In this document: positions 304-9,297 of the stretch, piece after piece
How positions within the stretch are numbered: position 1 is the stretch's first letter
Layout: every line of letters begins with the position of its first letter
From: an uncultured Panacagrimonas sp.
Lineage (GTDB): Bacteria > Pseudomonadota > Gammaproteobacteria > Nevskiales > Nevskiaceae
DNA: 9,297 nucleotides
Reading direction: 5' to 3'
Assembly: GCA_946481265.1 (NCBI GenBank)
Contig: CAMLNE010000161.1
Coordinates: 1 to 9,297 of the forward strand
Translations under genes and position numbers: made by a program
Notes under the pieces: generated by a model
Databases searched by the model: none
What the model saw: only the letters and a program-made list of their open reading frames with translations
Told to the model about the DNA's origin: nothing

Positions 304-711
304 ATGCAAGACGCCACCCGCACCCTGCTGCAGGACTACTACGCCGCCTTCAACAAGGGCGACTGGCACGCGTTCCTGGACATGCTCACCGAGGATGTCG
401 TCCACGACATCAACCAGGGCAGTCGCGAGGTCGGCCGGGCGGCGTTCGGCGCCTTCATGCAGCGCATGAACCGCTGCTATTCGGAACAGATCACGGACAT
501 CACGGTCATGACCGCGGCGGACGGCAGCCGCGCGGCGGTGGAATTCACCGTGCTCGGCACCTACCTGAACTCCGACGAAGGCCTGCCCGCGGCCACCGGG
601 CAGACCTACCGGCTGCCGGGCGGCGCGTTCTTCGAGATCCGCGGCGGCAAGGTGGCGCGGGTCACCAACTACTACAACCTGCAGGACTGGCTCGAGCAGG
701 TCGGGGCCTGA
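304..711 (+). CDS. NTF2/SnoaL-like ketosteroid isomerase-related protein
   Basis: The product is 135 residues, the normal size of a single NTF2-like cone-shaped domain. It starts with the typical helix TLLQDYYAAFNKGDWHAFLDML (about residues 7-28), followed by a TEDVVHDINQG strand-turn. It ends with FFEIRGGKVARVTNYYNL, the usual closing strands of SnoaL-like and ketosteroid-isomerase-like proteins. It resembles the protein group named 'ketosteroid isomerase-related protein', whose reaction is not established, so a steroid substrate should not be assumed. The ATG at 304 gives the family-like N-terminus. No Shine-Dalgarno is visible because the preceding 43 bases are C/T-rich, and an in-frame extension to 190 would overlap fdsD and adds unrelated sequence. 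The stop overlaps the next start (TGATG), so the gene is coupled to the acetyltransferase and nitrilase downstream. Confidence 0.8.
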   Translation: MQDATRTLLQDYYAAFNKGDWHAFLDMLTEDVVHDINQGSREVGRAAFGAFMQRMNRCYSEQITDITVMTAADGSRAAVEFTVLGTYLNSDEGLPAATGQTYRLPGGAFFEIRGGKVARVTNYYNLQDWLEQVGA

Positions 712-1301
712 TGTCCGGACTGCGCATCGAGCTGCTGCGGGGCGAGGCGATCGCCGCGCAACTGGATGCACTGGCGCGGCTGCGCATCGCCGTCTTTCGC
801 GAGTGGCCCTACCTCTACGCGGGCACGCTGGCCTACGAGCAGCAGTATCTCGACACCTACCTGCGCTGCCCGCGCAGCCTGGCGATCCTCGCCTGGGACG
901 GCGAGCGTTGCGTGGGTGCGTCCACCGCGCTGCCGCTGGAGGACGCCGGGGCCGCGGCGCAGGCGCCCTTCCTGGCCCGCGGGCAGGCGGTCGCGCCGAT
1001 CGACTACTTCGGCGAGTCGATCATCCTGCGGCCCTGGCGGGGGCGCGGCCTGGGCGTGACGTTCTTCGAACTGCGCGAGGCGCATGCACGGGAGCTGGGC
1101 CTGTCGATCTGTGCGTTCTGCGCCGTCGAGCGGCCTGCGGACCACCCTGCGCGGCCGGCGGACCACGTGACCAACGACGCCTTCTGGAGCCGGCGTGGGT
1201 ACCAGCGCCAGGACGACATGCACACCTCCTTCGACTGGCCGGACATCGGCCAGGAGCAGTCCACGGCCAAGACGATGGGCTTCTGGATGTGCCGGCTGTG
1301 A
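711..1301 (+). CDS. GNAT-family N-acetyltransferase
   Basis: The protein has 196 residues. The acetyl-CoA binding motif A is clear: strand SIILRPW (103-109) runs into R110-G-R-G-L-G115, matching the RxxGxG/A pyrophosphate-binding loop, followed by the helix VTFFELREAHARELG. An upstream strand, SLAILAWDGERCVGASTALP (56-75), is the usual GNAT beta hairpin before the catalytic core. The acceptor substrate cannot be read from the sequence. The start ATG at 711 shares one base with the upstream stop, and the stop overlaps the GTG of the nitrilase by four bases, so the three proteins are probably made together. Some bacteria, such as those with Bacillus YhcX-type proteins, carry a GNAT domain fused to a nitrilase domain. 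The adjacent genes here look like an unfused version of that pair, which suggests one shared pathway. Confidence 0.85.
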   Translation: MSGLRIELLRGEAIAAQLDALARLRIAVFREWPYLYAGTLAYEQQYLDTYLRCPRSLAILAWDGERCVGASTALPLEDAGAAAQAPFLARGQAVAPIDYFGESIILRPWRGRGLGVTFFELREAHARELGLSICAFCAVERPADHPARPADHVTNDAFWSRRGYQRQDDMHTSFDWPDIGQEQSTAKTMGFWMCRL

Positions 1302-2414: not shown

Positions 2415-3524
2415 ATGGACGTACGCGCTGCGATTGCGCTGGAAGCGGGCAAGCCGCTGGTGGTGGACACGGTGCAGCTGGAGGGCCCGAAGGCGGGCGA
2501 GGTGCTGGTCGAGATCAAGGCCACCGGCCTGTGCCACACCGACAAATACACCCTGTCGGGCGCCGATCCGGAGGGCCTCTTCCCGAGCATTCTCGGACAC
2601 GAGGGTGCGGGCATCGTCGTCGACGTCGGGCCGGGCGTGACCACCTTGAAGAAGGGTGACCACGTGATCCCGCTGTACACGCCCGAATGCCGGCAGTGCA
2701 AGAGCTGCACCTCGCACAAGACCAACCTGTGCACGGCGATCCGCGCCACGCAGGGCAAGGGCCTGATGCCGGACGGGACCAGCCGCTTCTCGTACAAGGG
2801 CAAGCCGGTGATGCACTACATGGGCTGCAGCACCTTCGCCAACTACACGGTGATGCCGGAGATCGCGCTGGCCAAGGTCCGCGAGGACGCCCCGTTCGAC
2901 AAGATCTGCTACATCGGCTGCGGCGTGACCACCGGCATCGGCGCGGTGCTGTTCACGGCCAAGGTGGAGGCCGGCGCGAACGTGGTGGTGTTCGGGCTGG
3001 GCGGGATCGGCCTGAACGTGATTCAGGGCGCGAAGATGGTTGGCGCCAACATGATCATCGGCGTCGACGTCAATCCGGGGCGCGAGCAGATGGCGCGCGA
3101 CTTCGGCATGACGCACTTCGTGAATCCCAAGCAGATCGAGGGCGACTTGGTCGCGCACCTGGTCGAATTGACCGGCGGCGGGGCCGACTACAGCTTCGAG
3201 TGCGTCGGCAACACCACCCTGATGCGCCAGGCCCTGGAGTGCTGCCACCGCGGCTGGGGCGTGAGCACGATCATCGGCGTGGCGGCGGCCGGGCAGGAGA
3301 TCTCGACCCGGCCGTTCCAGCTGGTGACCGGTCGTCGCTGGCAGGGCACGGCCTTCGGCGGCGCCCGCGGCCGCACGCAGGTGCCGCAGATCGTCGACTG
3401 GTACATGGACCGCAAGATCGAGATCGACTCGCTGATCACGCACGTGATGCCGCTGGAAAAGATCAACGAGGGCTTCGACCTGATGACACGCGGCGAATCG
3501 ATCCGCGGCGTCGTGGTGTTCTGA
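2415..3524 (+). CDS. frmA: S-(hydroxymethyl)glutathione dehydrogenase / class III alcohol dehydrogenase
   Basis: The enzyme has 369 residues, the standard length. It oxidises S-hydroxymethylglutathione, formed spontaneously from formaldehyde and glutathione, to S-formylglutathione with NAD. Catalytic zinc ligands are Cys40 (GLCHTD), His62 (GHEGAG) and Cys169 (YIGCGVTTG). Structural zinc ligands are Cys92, Cys95, Cys98 and Cys106. The NAD-binding loop is GLGGIG at 194-199. The class III signatures GADPEG (Asp51) and the Arg110 region with GKGLMPDGTSRF match the residues that hold the glutathione carboxylates. The ATG at 2415 is preceded by AGGAG at 2403-2407; in-frame codons upstream to 2277 are spacer. 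No S-formylglutathione hydrolase gene sits beside it in this window, and a strong terminator follows. It is often called adhC. It probably serves formaldehyde detoxification, and fdsD upstream belongs to the later formate step. Confidence 0.95.
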   Translation: MDVRAAIALEAGKPLVVDTVQLEGPKAGEVLVEIKATGLCHTDKYTLSGADPEGLFPSILGHEGAGIVVDVGPGVTTLKKGDHVIPLYTPECRQCKSCTSHKTNLCTAIRATQGKGLMPDGTSRFSYKGKPVMHYMGCSTFANYTVMPEIALAKVREDAPFDKICYIGCGVTTGIGAVLFTAKVEAGANVVVFGLGGIGLNVIQGAKMVGANMIIGVDVNPGREQMARDFGMTHFVNPKQIEGDLVAHLVELTGGGADYSFECVGNTTLMRQALECCHRGWGVSTIIGVAAAGQEISTRPFQLVTGRRWQGTAFGGARGRTQVPQIVDWYMDRKIEIDSLITHVMPLEKINEGFDLMTRGESIRGVVVF

Positions 3525-3559
3525 GGTCCGGGCGGCCGCTGGCGGCGCCGTGTCGACCG

Positions 3560-3588
3560 GGCCGGCTCCTTCGGGAGCCGGCCTTTTT
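3560..3588 (+). terminator. Intrinsic (rho-independent) terminator after adhC/frmA
   Basis: A perfect 10-base-pair stem, GGCCGGCTCC (3560-3569) with GGAGCCGGCC (3574-3583), is closed by a TTCG tetraloop (3570-3573) and followed at once by five Ts (3584-3588). It lies 35 bases past the dehydrogenase stop. It should end that transcript and separate it from the carboxylase operon downstream. Confidence 0.95.
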
Positions 3589-3803: not shown

Positions 3804-3831
3804 TTGCCGCTATTTGGGCCGAATTTATAGT
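3804..3831 (+). promoter_or_regulatory. Putative sigma70-type promoter of the carboxylase operon
   Basis: TTGCCG (3804-3809, four of six matches to the -35 consensus) and TATAGT (3826-3831, five of six matches to the -10) are separated by 16 bases. The -10 lies in the only AT-rich patch of the region. Transcription would start near 3838 and give a leader of about 60 bases. The placement is prediction only. Confidence 0.55.
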
Positions 3832-3867: not shown

Positions 3868-3896
3868 GCATCCATCTACTAAAAGAGGCGGGCTCT

Positions 3897-5834
3897 ATGT
3901 CCATGCTGATCAGTATCGATAACGGCGGAACTCTCACCGACGTCTGCGTGATCTACGGCGCGAAGGTGTTCCGCGCCAAGACGCTCACCACACCGCACGA
4001 TCTCACCCAGTGCTTCGTGCAGGTGCTCAAGGAAGCTTCCAAGCGCGTCTACGGAGAGGAGCGGCTCTCCGCACTGCTCGAGGAAGTCGACTACATCCGC
4101 TATTCCACCACCCAGGGCACGAATGCGGTCGTGCAGCGCAAGGGGCCCCGTCTGGGGCTGATCCTGCGCAAGGGCCAGGATCCCAAGAAGCTGGCCCGCA
4201 ACCAGGACGAGCGCGATCTGTTCGAGGCCACCGTCGCCGACCGCATCGCCTTCGTCGATCCCTCGCTGTCCGGCGAAGAACTGGAATCGAGCATGACCCA
4301 GGTCATCAACCAGCTGATGTCGGCCGGCGCGAACCGCGTGGTCGTCAGCCTGGGTGGCGCGCAGATCGCCGCCGACGAGCAGAAGGTCAAGAGCGTGGCC
4401 CTGCGGCGCTATCCGCGCCACCTGCTCGGCGCCGTGCCGATCCTGTATTCGCACCAGCTCTCCGACGATCGCGACGATGCCCGGCGCACCTGGAGCAGCC
4501 TGCTCAACGCCTTCCTGCATCCGGCGATGGAGCGCTTCCTCTACAACGCGGAAAACGTGCTGCGTGAGGCCCGCGCCCGCAATCCGCTGCTGATCTTCTG
4601 CAACGACGGCAGCTCCTCGCGCGTGGCCAAGACCGTTGCGCTCAAGACCTGGGGCTCGGGTCCGCGTGGCGGCATGGAAGGCGCCCGCGCCATCGCGCAG
4701 CACTACGGCAAGAACACGCTGCTGACCATGGACATCGGCGGCACCACCACCGACATCGGCGTGGTCGACCGCGGTGAAGTGCGCGAGCAGCGCTGGGGCG
4801 CGCTCGAGGACATCCAGATCTCGTTCCCGCTGTGCGAGGTCGAGAGCCTGGGCGCCGGCGGCAGCTCGGTGTTCAAGGTCGTCGGCGGCAAGCTGCAGGT
4901 CGGCCCCGAGTCGGTGGGCAGTGCGCCGGGGCCCGCCTGCTTCGGCTACGGCGGCAAGGAGGCGACGATCACCGACGCCTACCTGCTGCTGGGCATCCTG
5001 GACGGCGACTCCTACTTCGGCGGCAGCCTGAAGCTCGACGCCGAGCGCGCCAAGGCGGCCATCACGGAGAACGTTGCGACGCCGCTCGGGGTGAGCCTGG
5101 AAGAGGCGCTGATGCGCATGGAGCAGGCCTACACCACCAAGATCGCCGAGGCCATGAAGACGCTTGCGCCCGACCTCAAGGACGCCGCGCTGCTGGCCTT
5201 CGGTGGCGCCGGCCCGATGACGGCCTGCCGCGTCGCCGAGGCGCTGGGCGTCAACGAGATCATCGTGCCGCGCATGGCGGCCGTCTTCAGTGCCTTCGGC
5301 ATCGGCTTCTCGGACATCGCGCACAACTACGATGCCGCGCTGACCGATACCGGTGACAAGGGCCTGGCCAATGTGATCGAGCGCCTGACCCAGCGTGCCG
5401 CCCGCGACATGTTCGCCGAGGGCTTCGATCTGTCCGAGTGCGCGATCGAAAAGACGCTGACCTTCTCGCAGAACGGCGAGCAGGCCACGCGTCGCCTGAA
5501 CGGCGAACAGAAGGTGCCCGAGGGCCTCAAGTCCGCGCAGGACCTGCGCGTGCAGCTGCGCGCGACCAAGTCGATCCCGCACTACGCCCTCAAGCAGGAC
5601 GACATCAAGGGCGGCAAGGTGGCGACGGCCAAGCTCAGCCGCCAGGTGCGCCTGAGCGACAGCGGCAAGCTGAACGACACCAAGCTGCCCCTGTTCCGCC
5701 ACGAGGAACTGACCCCCGGACAGGGTGCTGCCGGGCCCGCGGTGGTGGAAGAGGAGTACTTCACCTGCCTGGTGCCCCCTGGCTGGAAGTTCAGCGTCAA
5801 CGACAACCACGACCTCGTGCTGACAAGGGGCTGA
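3897..5834 (+). CDS. apcA: HyuA-like ATP-binding subunit of acetophenone carboxylase-type enzyme (ApcA-like)
   Basis: The protein has 645 residues (about 70 kDa), in the hydantoinase A/oxoprolinase ASKHA family. It shows the first phosphate loop IDNGGTLTD (7-15), the second phosphate loop MDIGGTTTDIG (288-298), the family signature GPESVGSAPGPACFG (346-360), the adenosine-side loop AFGGAGP (434-440), and a C-terminal GPAVVEEEYFT domain (613-623). In acetophenone carboxylase two such subunits are proposed to phosphorylate ketone and bicarbonate at the cost of two ATP. Which role this one has cannot be read here. The first phosphate loop differs from the usual DIGGTFTD. ATG 3897 is chosen because AGAGG lies eight bases upstream; another ATG follows at 3903. 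The size and first position match ApcA. Alternatives are a HyuA relative with another substrate, or an acetone-carboxylase-like enzyme, but the gene order argues against the latter. Confidence 0.72.
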   Translation: MSMLISIDNGGTLTDVCVIYGAKVFRAKTLTTPHDLTQCFVQVLKEASKRVYGEERLSALLEEVDYIRYSTTQGTNAVVQRKGPRLGLILRKGQDPKKLARNQDERDLFEATVADRIAFVDPSLSGEELESSMTQVINQLMSAGANRVVVSLGGAQIAADEQKVKSVALRRYPRHLLGAVPILYSHQLSDDRDDARRTWSSLLNAFLHPAMERFLYNAENVLREARARNPLLIFCNDGSSSRVAKTVALKTWGSGPRGGMEGARAIAQHYGKNTLLTMDIGGTTTDIGVVDRGEVREQRWGALEDIQISFPLCEVESLGAGGSSVFKVVGGKLQVGPESVGSAPGPACFGYGGKEATITDAYLLLGILDGDSYFGGSLKLDAERAKAAITENVATPLGVSLEEALMRMEQAYTTKIAEAMKTLAPDLKDAALLAFGGAGPMTACRVAEALGVNEIIVPRMAAVFSAFGIGFSDIAHNYDAALTDTGDKGLANVIERLTQRAARDMFAEGFDLSECAIEKTLTFSQNGEQATRRLNGEQKVPEGLKSAQDLRVQLRATKSIPHYALKQDDIKGGKVATAKLSRQVRLSDSGKLNDTKLPLFRHEELTPGQGAAGPAVVEEEYFTCLVPPGWKFSVNDNHDLVLTRG

Positions 5835-5874
5835 GGCGAGAAGAACGTATCTGCCGCGCGAGCGCGCCACGACC

Positions 5875-5909
5875 GGATGAGAACCACAGGCCCCAGGCCG
5901 TTCTCCTCC
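5875..5909 (+). promoter_or_regulatory. Intercistronic hairpin in the 118-base gap between the first two carboxylase genes
   Basis: The gap 5835-5952 is much larger than the other gaps of this operon (12 and 29 bases). It contains an imperfect hairpin: GAGAAC (5879-5884) pairs with GTTCTC (5900-5905), an inner GGCC/GGCC pair (5889-5892 with 5896-5899) closes a 3-base loop, a 4-base bulge lies on the left arm, and GGA/TCC extends the base past one mismatch. No T-run follows, so it is not an intrinsic terminator. It could be an mRNA processing or stability element. Confidence 0.45.
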
Positions 5910-5952
5910 ATCTGCGCGAACCGCGGCAACTGAAATCTTGAGAGGAATCCGA

Positions 5953-6378
5953 ATGAAAATCGCAATGACCGAGTACCTGCAGATCGATCTCGACAAGGAA
6001 CGCTGGATGTGTCGCGTCTGCGACCACGATGTCGCCCCGGCCCGCGGCAACTACAAGGAAGGGCTGTTGGTCCACGCGCGTGATCCGCGCGAGATCCACA
6101 AGCCCATCCTGGATACTTCGTACGAGTTCACCTTCGCGCCCGACCCGGACTGGGTGCAGATCGTGGAGTACTACTGCCCGAGCTGCGGCACCCAGATGGA
6201 GGTCGAATACCTCACGCCGGGCCACCCGCCGCTGCACGACATGGAATTCGATATCGATGCGCTGAAGGCGCAGTGGGCCAAGCGGGCCCCGCAGGACACC
6301 AGCAAGCTGGCCGGTCCCGAGCCGCTGGGCGTCGAATACCACTCCCACAAGTCCGGCGGCATGCCGCGCGGGCGCTAA
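5953..6378 (+). CDS. apcB: Small zinc-ribbon-like gamma subunit of acetophenone carboxylase-type enzyme (ApcB-like)
   Basis: The protein has 141 residues (about 16 kDa). Two cysteine pairs, Cys20-RV-Cys23 and Cys75-PS-Cys78, are spaced as in a zinc ribbon. Between them lies the stretch PRGNYKEGLLVHARDPREIH. The C-terminus (SHKSGGMPRGR) is basic and looks flexible. Small metal-binding subunits of this kind occur in both acetophenone carboxylase (ApcB, about 15 kDa) and acetone carboxylase (AcxC), where they are structural parts of the hetero-oligomer. Its location between the two HyuA-like genes is the acetophenone-carboxylase order. The ATG at 5953 has AGAGGA at 5941-5946 in front; an in-frame TTG at 5938 lies before that site and is unlikely. 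Zinc binding is inferred from the CxxC pairs, not shown. Confidence 0.75.
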   Translation: MKIAMTEYLQIDLDKERWMCRVCDHDVAPARGNYKEGLLVHARDPREIHKPILDTSYEFTFAPDPDWVQIVEYYCPSCGTQMEVEYLTPGHPPLHDMEFDIDALKAQWAKRAPQDTSKLAGPEPLGVEYHSHKSGGMPRGR

Positions 6379-6390
6379 GGAGATCCAAAC

Positions 6391-8574
6391 ATGAAAAGAG
6401 TCGCCGTCGATATCGGTGGAACCTTCACCGACTGCTTCATGGTCTGGAACGAACACACGATCCAGTCCAAGGCGTTGACCACGCACCACAACCTCGCGCT
6501 CGGATTCCGCGAGGCGCTGCAGGCGGGTTGTTCCAAGCTCAATCTCGACATGCAGGACGTGCTGTCCGAGGTCGATTCCGTCCGCTACGCCACCACCCTG
6601 GGCACCAACGCGCTGATCGAGCGCAAGGGTCCCAAGGTGGCTCTGCTGGTCACCGCCGGCTACGAGTCCACCGTGCCGCTCGCCCGCGGCCGCGGCTATG
6701 GCGAGGGACTGAGCGAGAAGAGCCAGGCGGACCTCCCGGGCGCCTGCCGGCCGCCGGCACTGGTGCCGATCCCGATGATCGCCGGCGTGCGCGAACGCCT
6801 GGACGCGGTCGGCAACGTGCTGATGCGTCTGGACGAGGACGACCTGCGCGAGAAGATCCGCAATCTCGTCGACCGTGGTGCGCAGAGCTTCTGCGTGGCG
6901 TTGGTCAACTCGGTCGCCAATCCCGTTCACGAACGCCGGATCCAGGAGATCCTGCTCGAGGAGTATCCCGAGCACATGCTCGGCGCGATGCCGATCGTGA
7001 TGTCGCACAAGGTGGCAGGCCGCAAGGGTGAGTACGTGCGCGCCTCGTCGACGATCATCGACGCCTTCCTGCACGACGTGATGTATCACGGCCTGTCGTC
7101 GCTGGAGCTGAACCTGCGCGAATCCAGCTACACCAAGCCGATGCTGGTGATCCACAACTCCGGCGGCATGGCGCAGCTCAACTCCACCGACGCACTGCAG
7201 ACGATCCACTCGGGTCCGGTCGCCGGCGTGTCCGCCTCCGAGCACCTGGCGGCGGAAGCCGACCTGGGCAACGTGATCTGCACCGACATGGGCGGCACCA
7301 GCTTCGACATCGGCCTGGTCGTCGAAGGCGGCGTCAAGCACTACGACTTCAACCCGGTCATCGAGCGCTGGATGGTCAGCGTGCCGATGATCCACCTGGT
7401 CACGCTCGGTGCCGGCGGCGGCTCCATCTGCCGCTACGACCGTCTGTACAACACCGTGCAGGTGGGCCCGGAGTCGGCCGGCTCGAACCCTGGTCCCGCC
7501 AGCTACGACCGCGGCGGCCTGAAGCCGACGGTAGCGGACGCCGACCTGGTGCTCGGCTACCTGGATCCGGCCAACTACGCCGGTGGCGCCATCAAGCTCA
7601 AGCCCAATCGCGCCAAGCAGGCCATCGAGGACGAGATCTGCGAGGCGCTGGACGTGTCGGTGACCGAGGGCGCGCTGATGGTCAAGCGCAAGGTCGACGC
7701 CAACATGGCCAACGGCATCGCCACCGAGCTGCGCGCCCGCGGCTACGACCCGTCGAACTTCACGCTGCTGGCCTACGGCGGCAACGGTCCGCTGCACGGC
7801 TGCGGCATCGCCAACCAGCTCGGCATCGACCGCATGCTGGTGCCGCCGTTCTGCTCGGTCTTCTCGGCGGTGGGTGCGGGCAACATGCACCAGCTGCACA
7901 TCCACGAGAAGTCGCTGTTCATGTGGATCTTCGACAGCAACACCCGCAAGCTCTACAACGACTACGCGGCCTTCAACAAGATCGTCGAGGAGCTGGAGGA
8001 AGCCGGCCGCCAGGACCTGCTGCGCCAGGGCATGAAGCCCTCGGACATCAAGCACAAGCTAGAGCTCGACATGCGTTTCGGAAACCAGCTTGCGCAGACC
8101 ACGGTGGTCGCGCCCAAGCTGCGCTTCGAGAGCATGGAAGACGTGATGGCCATCATCAAGCAGTTCTCGCTCGACTACGGCAACCGCTTCGGCAAGGGAT
8201 CGGAGGCGCCCGAGGCGGGCATCCGCATCAACACGATCCGCGTGCAGAGCTACGTCGAGCTGGAAACGGTGGGACTCGGCAACCTGCGCGCGAAGACCAC
8301 CAAGGCGGCAGGCAAGGCGCCCGGGTCCCGCAAGTGCTACTTCGTCGGCCATGAAGGCGCCGTCGACACCGCGATCTACAACCACGAGGGGCTCGAGGTG
8401 GGATCGGTGGTGACGGGCCCCGCCATCGTCGTATCGACCACCACCACCTACCTGGTTGAACCAGGCTGGACCTGCGAGATCGGCGAACACGGCGCGGCAT
8501 GGTTCACGCGTGGAACCGCAACCGCAGGCGGCAAGGCGATCAAGGCCTCTTCCACGGCCAAGGCAAAGGCCTGA
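6391..8574 (+). CDS. apcC: Second HyuA-like ATP-binding subunit of acetophenone carboxylase-type enzyme (ApcC-like)
   Basis: The protein has 727 residues (roughly 79 kDa), a paralogue of the 645-residue subunit upstream. It has canonical ASKHA loops: VDIGGTFTD at 6-14, TDMGGTSFDIG around Asp299, and AYGGNGPLHG at 461-470. It also has the HyuA signatures LGAGGGS (339-345) and VGPESAGSNPGPA (358-370), and a C-terminal TGPAIVV region. About twenty terminal residues are rich in Ala, Lys, Gly and Thr (ending STAKAKA) and look like a flexible tail. In the acetophenone carboxylase core complex the two HyuA-like chains are thought to handle different phosphoryl acceptors, ketone and bicarbonate; the assignment here is open. 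AAGGAG overlaps the TAA stop of the preceding gene, 12 bases before the ATG, so translation is tightly linked. The third position and larger size fit ApcC. Confidence 0.75.
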   Translation: MKRVAVDIGGTFTDCFMVWNEHTIQSKALTTHHNLALGFREALQAGCSKLNLDMQDVLSEVDSVRYATTLGTNALIERKGPKVALLVTAGYESTVPLARGRGYGEGLSEKSQADLPGACRPPALVPIPMIAGVRERLDAVGNVLMRLDEDDLREKIRNLVDRGAQSFCVALVNSVANPVHERRIQEILLEEYPEHMLGAMPIVMSHKVAGRKGEYVRASSTIIDAFLHDVMYHGLSSLELNLRESSYTKPMLVIHNSGGMAQLNSTDALQTIHSGPVAGVSASEHLAAEADLGNVICTDMGGTSFDIGLVVEGGVKHYDFNPVIERWMVSVPMIHLVTLGAGGGSICRYDRLYNTVQVGPESAGSNPGPASYDRGGLKPTVADADLVLGYLDPANYAGGAIKLKPNRAKQAIEDEICEALDVSVTEGALMVKRKVDANMANGIATELRARGYDPSNFTLLAYGGNGPLHGCGIANQLGIDRMLVPPFCSVFSAVGAGNMHQLHIHEKSLFMWIFDSNTRKLYNDYAAFNKIVEELEEAGRQDLLRQGMKPSDIKHKLELDMRFGNQLAQTTVVAPKLRFESMEDVMAIIKQFSLDYGNRFGKGSEAPEAGIRINTIRVQSYVELETVGLGNLRAKTTKAAGKAPGSRKCYFVGHEGAVDTAIYNHEGLEVGSVVTGPAIVVSTTTTYLVEPGWTCEIGEHGAAWFTRGTATAGGKAIKASSTAKAKA

Positions 8575-8603
8575 GCCTCAACACCAGAATCCGGAGTCAT
8601 CAA

Positions 8604-9297
8604 ATGGGCAAGAACGAAGCTCAAAGCTACACCGAGAAGGAAAAGTCGATCGTCGACCAGTTCCTGGCCGACAACGTGCTGTTCCTGGGTCCCGATCCCG
8701 AGATCATGGAAGAGCATGATTTGTCTGCGCGCACGGAGGTGGAAGAGGCGGCGCTGGCAAACTCCACCGACGCCGCCATGCATGCGCTGGTACGCGACCG
8801 CCTGCAGGCGGGTGCGAACGAATCGTTCGAGATGCTCGAACAGATGGGCGCGGCGCCCGGCGCCAAGTGGGGAGACCTGATCACCGGCGTCTTCACCGCC
8901 AGCGGCGACCTGGCAGTATCCAGCGCCGGCGGCGTGCTGATCTTCTCCGCGGTCGTGCATCACCCGATCAAGTACATCGTCAAGTACTGGACGAACGATG
9001 CGACGGTCGGCGTCAAGGAAGGCGACGGCTTCATCCATAACGACGCACGCTACGGCAACATCCACAACACCGACCAGTCGCTGATGCTGCCGGTGTTCTG
9101 GGAAGGCAGGCTGGTGTGCTGGGCCTGCGCGACCGTGCACGAGGGCGAGAACGGCGCCATCGAGCCGGGTGGCATGCCTTCGCTGGCCGAATCGGTCTAC
9201 GAGGAAGGGCTCAAGATGTCGCCCTTCAAGGTGGTCGAGAACTACGAGCTGAAGAAGGATCTCGTCACCTTCCTGCAGAACTCGGTGCGCGAGCCCA
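8604..9297 (+). CDS. apcD: HyuB-like beta subunit of acetophenone carboxylase-type enzyme (ApcD-like), truncated by window end
   Basis: The first 231 residues of a hydantoinase B-family protein are present and the frame is still open at the window edge; the family is usually well over 500 residues. The family core is clear: EGDGFIHNDARYGNIHNTD (139-157), then PVFWEGRLVCWACATVHEGE (163-182) and GGMP. His154, Asp157 and His179 have a spacing that resembles, from memory, the metal ligands His150/Asp153/His175 of acetone carboxylase. In the acetophenone carboxylase core complex this subunit carries the novel beta-barrel domain and is the likely site of C-C bond formation. The usual AHHxDVGG motif of hydantoinases is replaced by VHEGENGAIEPGG. 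The ATG at 8604 has GGAG at 8593-8596 and follows the previous stop by 29 bases. The remaining apcE-like and CoA-ligase genes, if present, lie outside. Confidence 0.75.
   Translation, partial: MGKNEAQSYTEKEKSIVDQFLADNVLFLGPDPEIMEEHDLSARTEVEEAALANSTDAAMHALVRDRLQAGANESFEMLEQMGAAPGAKWGDLITGVFTASGDLAVSSAGGVLIFSAVVHHPIKYIVKYWTNDATVGVKEGDGFIHNDARYGNIHNTDQSLMLPVFWEGRLVCWACATVHEGENGAIEPGGMPSLAESVYEEGLKMSPFKVVENYELKKDLVTFLQNSVREP

What the first reader, a model, noticed from the sequence alone, without database searches (positions are those of the whole stretch)
3897..9297. Apc-type ATP-dependent ketone carboxylase operon with unknown substrate
Sequence shows the order HyuA-like (645 aa), two-CxxC small protein (141 aa), HyuA-like (727 aa), HyuB-like. 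This matches apcABCD of Aromatoleum acetophenone carboxylase in order and approximate size. It differs from acetone carboxylase (acxABC, one large HyuA-like chain) and from two-gene hydantoinases. Few members of this class have been characterised, and the window contains no ethylbenzene or ketone pathway gene to fix the substrate, so it may act on another aryl or alkyl ketone.
Basis: partly seen in the sequence, partly recalled or inferred. Interest (0 to 1): 0.75.

Follow-up and report, generated by a model that had tools for sequence, protein, structure and literature searches.

The report
Apc-like ketone carboxylase, new branch
These four genes look like most of an ATP-driven enzyme that adds carbon dioxide to a ketone so that a bacterium can use it as food; it is a distant cousin of the one well-studied acetophenone enzyme, with a different predicted binding pocket, so its ketone is probably a different one and still unknown.

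Summary
The window holds apcA-like (3897-5834, 645 aa), apcB-like (5953-6378, 141 aa), apcC-like (6391-8574, 727 aa) and the start of apcD-like (8604 to the window end). All four match acetophenone carboxylase (PDB 5l9w) best, but the three complete ones score far below NCBI's Apc equivalog cut-offs. They belong to a widespread sister branch. Its predicted ketone pocket in ApcC is almost invariant (T, I/V, H, P, I, H, L; both His in 77 of 78 sequences) and differs from Apc (L, F, N, P, I, Q, T), acetone carboxylase and hydantoinase. Relatives sit beside enzymes that activate beta-keto acids (acetoacetate-CoA ligase, FadD-like ligase, 3-oxoacid CoA-transferase): 37 of 56 full-flank loci against 2 of 20 control regions. 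A ~280-aa protein with the uroporphyrinogen-decarboxylase fold, whose best Foldseek match is the solved ApcE, was found in 33 of 33 genomes with this branch and 0 of 339 without. So: an Apc-type, biotin-independent ketone carboxylase of a separate sub-branch, most likely making a 3-oxo acid from a ketone other than acetophenone. The substrate is not fixed, and the window ends before the rest of the operon.

The parts
3559..3584 (+). intrinsic terminator-like hairpin after adhC; would separate the adhC unit from the carboxylase genes
   Evidence: 11-pair stem with T run, 1 found against 0.2 expected
3804..3831 (+). sigma-70-like promoter TTGCCG-16-TATAGT, 65 bases before apcA
   Evidence: consensus match 9 of 12, 0.0 expected in shuffles; not tested
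3884..3888 (+). AGAGG, likely ribosome-binding site of apcA
   Evidence: read from sequence
3897..5834 (+). apcA-like, alpha-prime chain (HyuA-like ASKHA kinase, 645 aa), proposed bicarbonate kinase
   Evidence: Pfam PF01968/PF05378; PDB 5l9w_b 335 bits; NCBIfam ApcA 391 bits against cut-off 1250
5953..6378 (+). apcB-like, gamma chain with two CxxC (141 aa; an earlier TTG start at 5938 is possible)
   Evidence: PF08882; 5l9w_C 121 bits; four Zn-site Cys conserved
6391..8574 (+). apcC-like, alpha chain (727 aa), proposed ketone kinase, altered pocket T/I/H/P/I/H/L
   Evidence: 5l9w_B 542 bits against 298 for acetone carboxylase; pocket; motif GVRERLDAVG
8604..9297 (+). apcD-like, beta chain, first 231 aa only (window ends)
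   Evidence: PF02538; 5l9w_A 106 bits against 69 for acetone carboxylase; Asp-His-Asp-His metal-site residues conserved

Best explanation
The window carries the first four genes of an Apc-type ketone carboxylase of a separate branch. By analogy with Apc, ApcC-like phosphorylates the enol form of a ketone, ApcA-like activates bicarbonate to carboxyphosphate with a second ATP, ApcB-like and ApcD-like form the scaffold with a metal site, and an epsilon-like protein with the uroporphyrinogen-decarboxylase fold (not in the window) completes the enzyme. The product would be a 3-oxo acid, which in relatives would be turned into its CoA ester by acetoacetate-CoA ligase, a FadD-like ligase or 3-oxoacid CoA-transferase and then split by thiolase. 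The ketone is probably not acetophenone; a methyl or other alkyl ketone is the best guess. Shown by computation: genes, order, motifs, pocket change, neighbours, co-occurrence of epsilon. Inferred: activity, division of labour, substrate.
For: All four subunits match Apc best in the PDB. A subunits group with ApcA. ATP motifs read directly: DNGGTLTD, DIGGTTTD and SAPGP in ApcA; DIGGTFTD, DMGGTSFD and SNPGP in ApcC. Metal-site residues in 72 of 72 D subunits aligned (6 of 78 called were too short). Neighbours: acid-activating enzyme in 37 of 56 full-flank loci against 2 of 20 control regions, Fisher p 1.5e-5; epsilon-like in 47 of 56 against 0 of 20. The one 675-aa ligase tested passes the acetoacetate-CoA ligase equivalog cut-off, 794 against 521 bits. 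One CoA-transferase A/B pair tested passes the 3-oxoacid CoA-transferase subfamily cut-offs. Epsilon-like was found in exactly the genomes with this branch: 27 of 58, 3 of 17 and 3 of 297 (105 and 106; 107 and 108). Its predicted structure matches solved ApcE first by Foldseek.
Against: I found no activity or physiology for the clade in the searches. The C-subunit tree does not resolve Apc against acetone carboxylase against hydantoinase. D subunits of relatives (median 758 aa) are nearer in length to the EbN1 acetone carboxylase chain (774) than to ApcD (684). 19 of 56 full-flank loci, among them the window-clade locus L002, show no acid-activating gene by this test. Thiolase alone is not clearly enriched: 15 of 56 against 3 of 20. 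The closest relative fetched (L098) has the window's upstream genes but ends before apcD, so the window's own downstream is unseen.
Confidence: 0.75

Rival explanations
1. It is an acetophenone carboxylase proper, making benzoylacetate from acetophenone.
For: Same four-gene order and best PDB match. Relatives in the window's sub-clade carry a PAS histidine kinase and a LuxR-type regulator, and EbN1 is described as controlling acetophenone degradation with a predicted two-component system (PMC4729919, passages).
Against: Scores of 391, 147 and 587 bits against equivalog cut-offs of 1250, 250 and 1500 (ApcD is cut off by the window end). Five of seven pocket residues differ from EbN1 ApcC. The ligases of relatives match the AMP-binding gene after EbN1 apcE (taken as bal by its place) only weakly: best 27% over 134 aa, E 7e-5.
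Confidence: 0.1
2. It is an acetone (short aliphatic ketone) carboxylase in an Apc-like five-part form.
For: Genes like acetoacetate-CoA ligase (for one representative; 23 of 85 loci by BLAST) and 3-oxoacid CoA-transferase (10 of 85 loci) lie beside relatives. The EbN1 acetone carboxylase genes (L155, identified by a 1133-bit match to 5m45_B) are followed by YCF48-like and MMPL genes 55% and 74% identical to those near relatives of the window. D length in relatives is like the acetone enzyme's.
Against: Two HyuA-like chains instead of one; PDB scores are lower for acetone carboxylase than for Apc in all four subunits. Many relatives also have alcohol dehydrogenases, DUF1302/DUF1329/MMPL sets and in some an esterase-like gene, which could mean larger or varied substrates.
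Confidence: 0.35
3. It is an ATP-dependent lactam or hydantoin hydrolase (HyuAB-like).
For: Same Pfam families, and source databases name homologs N-methylhydantoinase or hydantoinase/oxoprolinase.
Against: HyuAB systems are described as two-gene systems without a gamma chain (PMC5214803, section 3, parts 1-2 read). ApcC has His where the EbN1 HyuA-like chain has Asp, and ApcD has the His where the EbN1 HyuB-like chain has Gln (one Hyu sequence each, taken as hydantoinase-type from its two-gene order).
Confidence: 0.06

Closest known systems
Acetophenone carboxylase ApcABCDE, Aromatoleum aromaticum EbN1 (PDB 5l9w core, 9fou ApcE)
   Same: Gene order, both ASKHA chains, gamma chain with four Cys, metal-site residues of beta; in relatives an epsilon-like protein of the same overall fold
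   Different: EbN1 ApcA is 34% identical to the window's; different ketone pocket and alpha-prime pocket; longer D in relatives; epsilon-like not matched to ApcE with confidence by sequence; other CoA-activating enzymes
Acetone carboxylase AcxABC
   Same: HyuA/HyuB/gamma parts, metal site, beta-keto-acid product logic, similar neighbours in EbN1
   Different: Only one HyuA-like chain, other gene order, lower similarity; no epsilon-like gene in the EbN1 genome by profile
Hydantoinase / 5-oxoprolinase / caprolactamase
   Same: HyuA and HyuB families, ATP motifs
   Different: Two-gene, no gamma, no second HyuA; different pocket residues
Uroporphyrinogen decarboxylase fold
   Different: 8-14% identity; no sequence-level match; function of the epsilon-like protein unknown

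Membership tests
Apc-type ketone carboxylase (apcABCD(E)) | gene order alpha-prime, gamma, alpha, beta | tested here: met
   definition from PMC5214803 section 3
Apc-type ketone carboxylase (apcABCD(E)) | two HyuA-like chains, each with the ATP-site motifs | tested here: met
   motifs in P0001 and P0003; A groups with ApcA in the tree
Apc-type ketone carboxylase (apcABCD(E)) | gamma chain with four zinc-site Cys | tested here: met
Apc-type ketone carboxylase (apcABCD(E)) | R/KERiDsxG fingerprint in alpha, absent from alpha-prime | tested here: met
   GVRERLDAVG in the window ApcC (2 of the 10 relatives shown there, L008 and L082, did not match the pattern); no RER or KER in the printed ApcA
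Apc-type ketone carboxylase (apcABCD(E)) | subunit lengths (beta about 50 aa shorter than in acetone carboxylase) | tested here: inconclusive
   window apcD is cut off; relatives have a median of 758 aa, near the acetone carboxylase chain
Apc-type ketone carboxylase (apcABCD(E)) | epsilon subunit | not testable with these tools
   window ends inside apcD; in relatives an epsilon-fold protein is in 33 of 33 genomes with the branch and 0 of 339 without
Apc-type ketone carboxylase (apcABCD(E)) | ATP- and bicarbonate-dependent carboxylation | not testable with these tools
   needs an assay
Acetophenone carboxylase sensu stricto | NCBIfam equivalog cut-offs | tested here: not met
   391/1250, 147/250, 587/1500 bits for ApcA, B, C; ApcD is truncated
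Acetophenone carboxylase sensu stricto | predicted acetophenone pocket residues of ApcC | tested here: not met
   5 of 7 positions differ; the alternative is kept in 77-78 of 78 at the six fixed sites
Acetone carboxylase | acxABC order with one HyuA-like chain | tested here: not met
   second HyuA-like chain present
Hydantoinase/oxoprolinase | two genes, no gamma chain | tested here: not met
   apcB-like PF08882, 145 bits against cut-off 21

The most novel reading that the evidence does not exclude
The epsilon-like protein is an obligatory fifth subunit of the enzymes of this branch, and its uroporphyrinogen-decarboxylase-like barrel is where the activated ketone and CO2 are joined: a decarboxylase fold run in the carboxylating direction, which would answer how two kinase sites about 50 A apart in the Apc core cooperate. 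The branch, with its two-His pocket, would then be a widespread carboxylation system for non-aryl ketones.
Probability: 0.25. Interest if true: 0.75.

Novelty: new variant of a known kind. Interest (0 to 1): 0.5.

Why it matters
PMC5214803 (2017; [quoted passage not shown] Here a deep, widely spread branch has one almost invariant alternative pocket, points by its neighbours to 3-oxo-acid products, and keeps a divergent epsilon-fold protein even where it is unlinked. That makes ketone specificity and the role of epsilon directly testable, and would correct hydantoinase-type names given to many of these proteins.

Tried and rejected

Limits of my counts. The neighbour genes come from my own codon-usage ORF caller. 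Loci are related to one another and some come from the same genome. Of 121 plasmid records with a match I fetched 5; of 390 genome stretches the best 80 were kept; one search scored only 7997 candidates. The tree used 31 of the 86 operon sequences, hand-picked, plus two more. An earlier pocket count (n = 85) took in 7 extra chains picked with a filter that asked for IH or VH somewhere in the chain, so I replaced it (n = 78, without them; 5 of 83 called C chains dropped for 600 aa or less; 76 distinct). The one exception, L014, has Asn at both His positions. The 20 control regions come from 4 genomes and one of them had a single called gene. Fisher values ignore kinship. In some searches only the top 4 or 8 candidates of each genome were scored and most genomes without a match are not listed. 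The A3 rows come from such operons, so presence of epsilon in linked loci is partly circular; its absence from 339 genomes and the unlinked cases (G005, G011, G012) are not. G063 is taken as EbN1 because the EbN1-named ApcE (P0248) lies on a contig of the same length and its ApcC matches 5l9w over the full length.

Full report
What is there. Four same-strand genes in the order apcA, apcB, apcC, apcD fill 3897 to the window end. Spacing is 118, 12 and 29 bases. Upstream lie a SnoaL-like protein, an ORF with no Pfam or NCBIfam hit, a carbon-nitrogen hydrolase and adhC (class III alcohol dehydrogenase). A terminator-like hairpin at 3559-3584 and a promoter-like site at 3804-3831 suggest that the carboxylase genes start a new transcription unit. 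No whole genome is held for the window. A MAG titled Panacagrimonas (L098 in G002, the genome of L018) has the same upstream order with adhC 97% identical and an apcA relative 90 and 80% identical in two frame-broken pieces, so the host is probably close to Panacagrimonas (Nevskiaceae); this is inference.

Family. Each protein matches the corresponding Apc subunit of PDB 5l9w best, with acetone carboxylase, 5-oxoprolinase and N-methylhydantoinase lower. The NCBIfam Apc equivalogs are the best named matches but under their cut-offs. The 120 best of 3170 listed-or-counted homologs of ApcA are 52-100% identical, with hydantoinase/oxoprolinase-type names where a source names them. A genome scan gave 390 related stretches, of which the best 80 were kept; five plasmid records were added. 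They are mostly Pseudomonadota, with Bacillota and, on plasmids, Rhodococcus. In a tree of 73 HyuA-like chains one branch (99) joins the A subunits with EbN1 ApcA, and the C subunits form one clade (99); the join of that clade with Apc, Acx and Hyu chains is unresolved and has long branches. The window sits in a sub-clade of eight (99) in both halves of the tree.

Pocket. Using the residues named for Apc alpha and alpha-prime in PMC5214803, I aligned the C subunits longer than 600 aa. Positions 81, 282, 285, 333, 344 and 345 read T, H, P, I, H, L: 78, 77, 78, 78, 77 and 78 of 78; position 281 is I, V or M (43, 34, 1). EbN1 Apc has L, N, P, I, Q, T and F at 281. The EbN1 acetone carboxylase chain (identified) reads L, V, P, M, A, M (I at 281) and the EbN1 HyuA-like chain T, L, P, I, D, I (L at 281). 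The single exception, L014 (Neobacillus niacini), has Asn at both His positions, so the two vary together. In alpha-prime, Glu248 is Ser or Gly (71 and 16 of 87) and Lys281 is Asp (87 of 87). The beta-chain Asp-His-Asp-His site is kept in 72 of 72, the window included. The acetophenone pocket assignment itself is tentative in that paper.

Neighbourhood. Among 85 loci the recurrent neighbours are: a ~280-aa protein after apcD, AMP-binding ligases, short-chain dehydrogenases, sigma-54 or LuxR-type regulators, thiolase, 3-oxoacid CoA-transferase, and an MMPL/YCF48/DUF1302/DUF1329 set. One representative long ligase passes the acetoacetate-CoA ligase equivalog. With one BLAST test, an acid-activating enzyme lies in 46 of 85 loci, 37 of the 56 with full flanks, against 2 of 20 control regions; thiolase alone gives 15 of 56 against 3 of 20. 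Of the seven relatives in the window's own sub-clade (L001, L002, L003, L004, L008, G020 copy 1, G027), four have a ligase and three a thiolase nearby; L004 ends after apcD and L001 begins 376 bases before apcA. L001's genome has ligase, thiolase, CoA-transferase and an epsilon-like gene together on another contig. So ketone, 3-oxo acid, 3-oxoacyl-CoA and thiolysis is the most economical reading.

Fifth subunit. The ~280-aa protein has no Pfam or NCBIfam match in the one representative scanned (L002). AlphaFold models of it (pLDDT 92) and of EbN1 ApcE (P0248, pLDDT 94.5) were made. Foldseek's best PDB match for the first is solved ApcE, 9fou (E 8e-8), then uroporphyrinogen decarboxylases; ApcE itself matches 9fou and then the same fold. 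VIA-align ranks decarboxylases above ApcE. At E 1e-150 for ApcA and 1e-10 for the epsilon-like profile, the set of genomes holding the one equals the set holding the other: 27 of 58 in the family of G001 (Panacagrimonas perspica), 3 of 17 in the genus of G003 (Aromatoleum; the two genomes with EbN1-type Apc lack the epsilon-like protein), and 3 of 297 in the family of G105 (Ciceribacter); in all 33 of 33 and 0 of 339 (test). It was also found in 11 of 11 further genomes or plasmids holding the operon, one of them (G003) counted above. In G005, G011 and G012 the gene is not near apcA. This argues that epsilon is part of the enzyme even where it is not in the operon.

Verdict. The enzyme works like Apc and, by the features tested, belongs to the Apc-type architecture, but it is not acetophenone carboxylase as NCBIfam defines it. 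The activity, the substrate and the place of the C-C bond step remain inferences.

Noticed in passing
window 2415-3524: adhC/frmA-like class III alcohol dehydrogenase above its equivalog cut-off, 97% identical to the gene in the same place in L098; a separate unit, not a ketone gene.
   Followed up: partly
window 711-1301: 196-aa ORF with no Pfam or NCBIfam match, conserved (69%) in L098 beside the carbon-nitrogen hydrolase; looks acetyltransferase-like by eye only.
   Followed up: no
L098 and L099: One MAG titled Panacagrimonas has two different partial copies (90-93% nucleotide identity to each other) of the window-type apcA at contig ends; the L099 copy follows a thiolase, OB-fold, CoA-transferase III, GMC oxidoreductase, P450, FMO-like and TetR run that could be terpenoid or steroid breakdown.
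   Followed up: partly
L155 4834-13424 (EbN1 acetone carboxylase): Genes for YCF48-like and MMPL proteins directly follow the acetone carboxylase genes and are 55% and 74% identical to those near window-type operons, so this export-like set may serve ketone carboxylases in general.
   Followed up: no
L081, L042, L043, L076: The operon is followed by CoA-transferase genes, an extra sigma-54 factor (RpoN-like) and a CobW GTPase, an unusual private sigma factor beside a catabolic operon.
   Followed up: no
L014 (Neobacillus niacini): The only ApcC-like chain of 78 with Asn at both pocket His positions; its neighbourhood also lacks an acid-activating gene by the test. It may act on another substrate.
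   Followed up: no
G006: One betaproteobacterial MAG has 10 HyuA-like matches to the window's ApcA at E 1e-60 or better, several of them ApcA-like paralogs.
   Followed up: no
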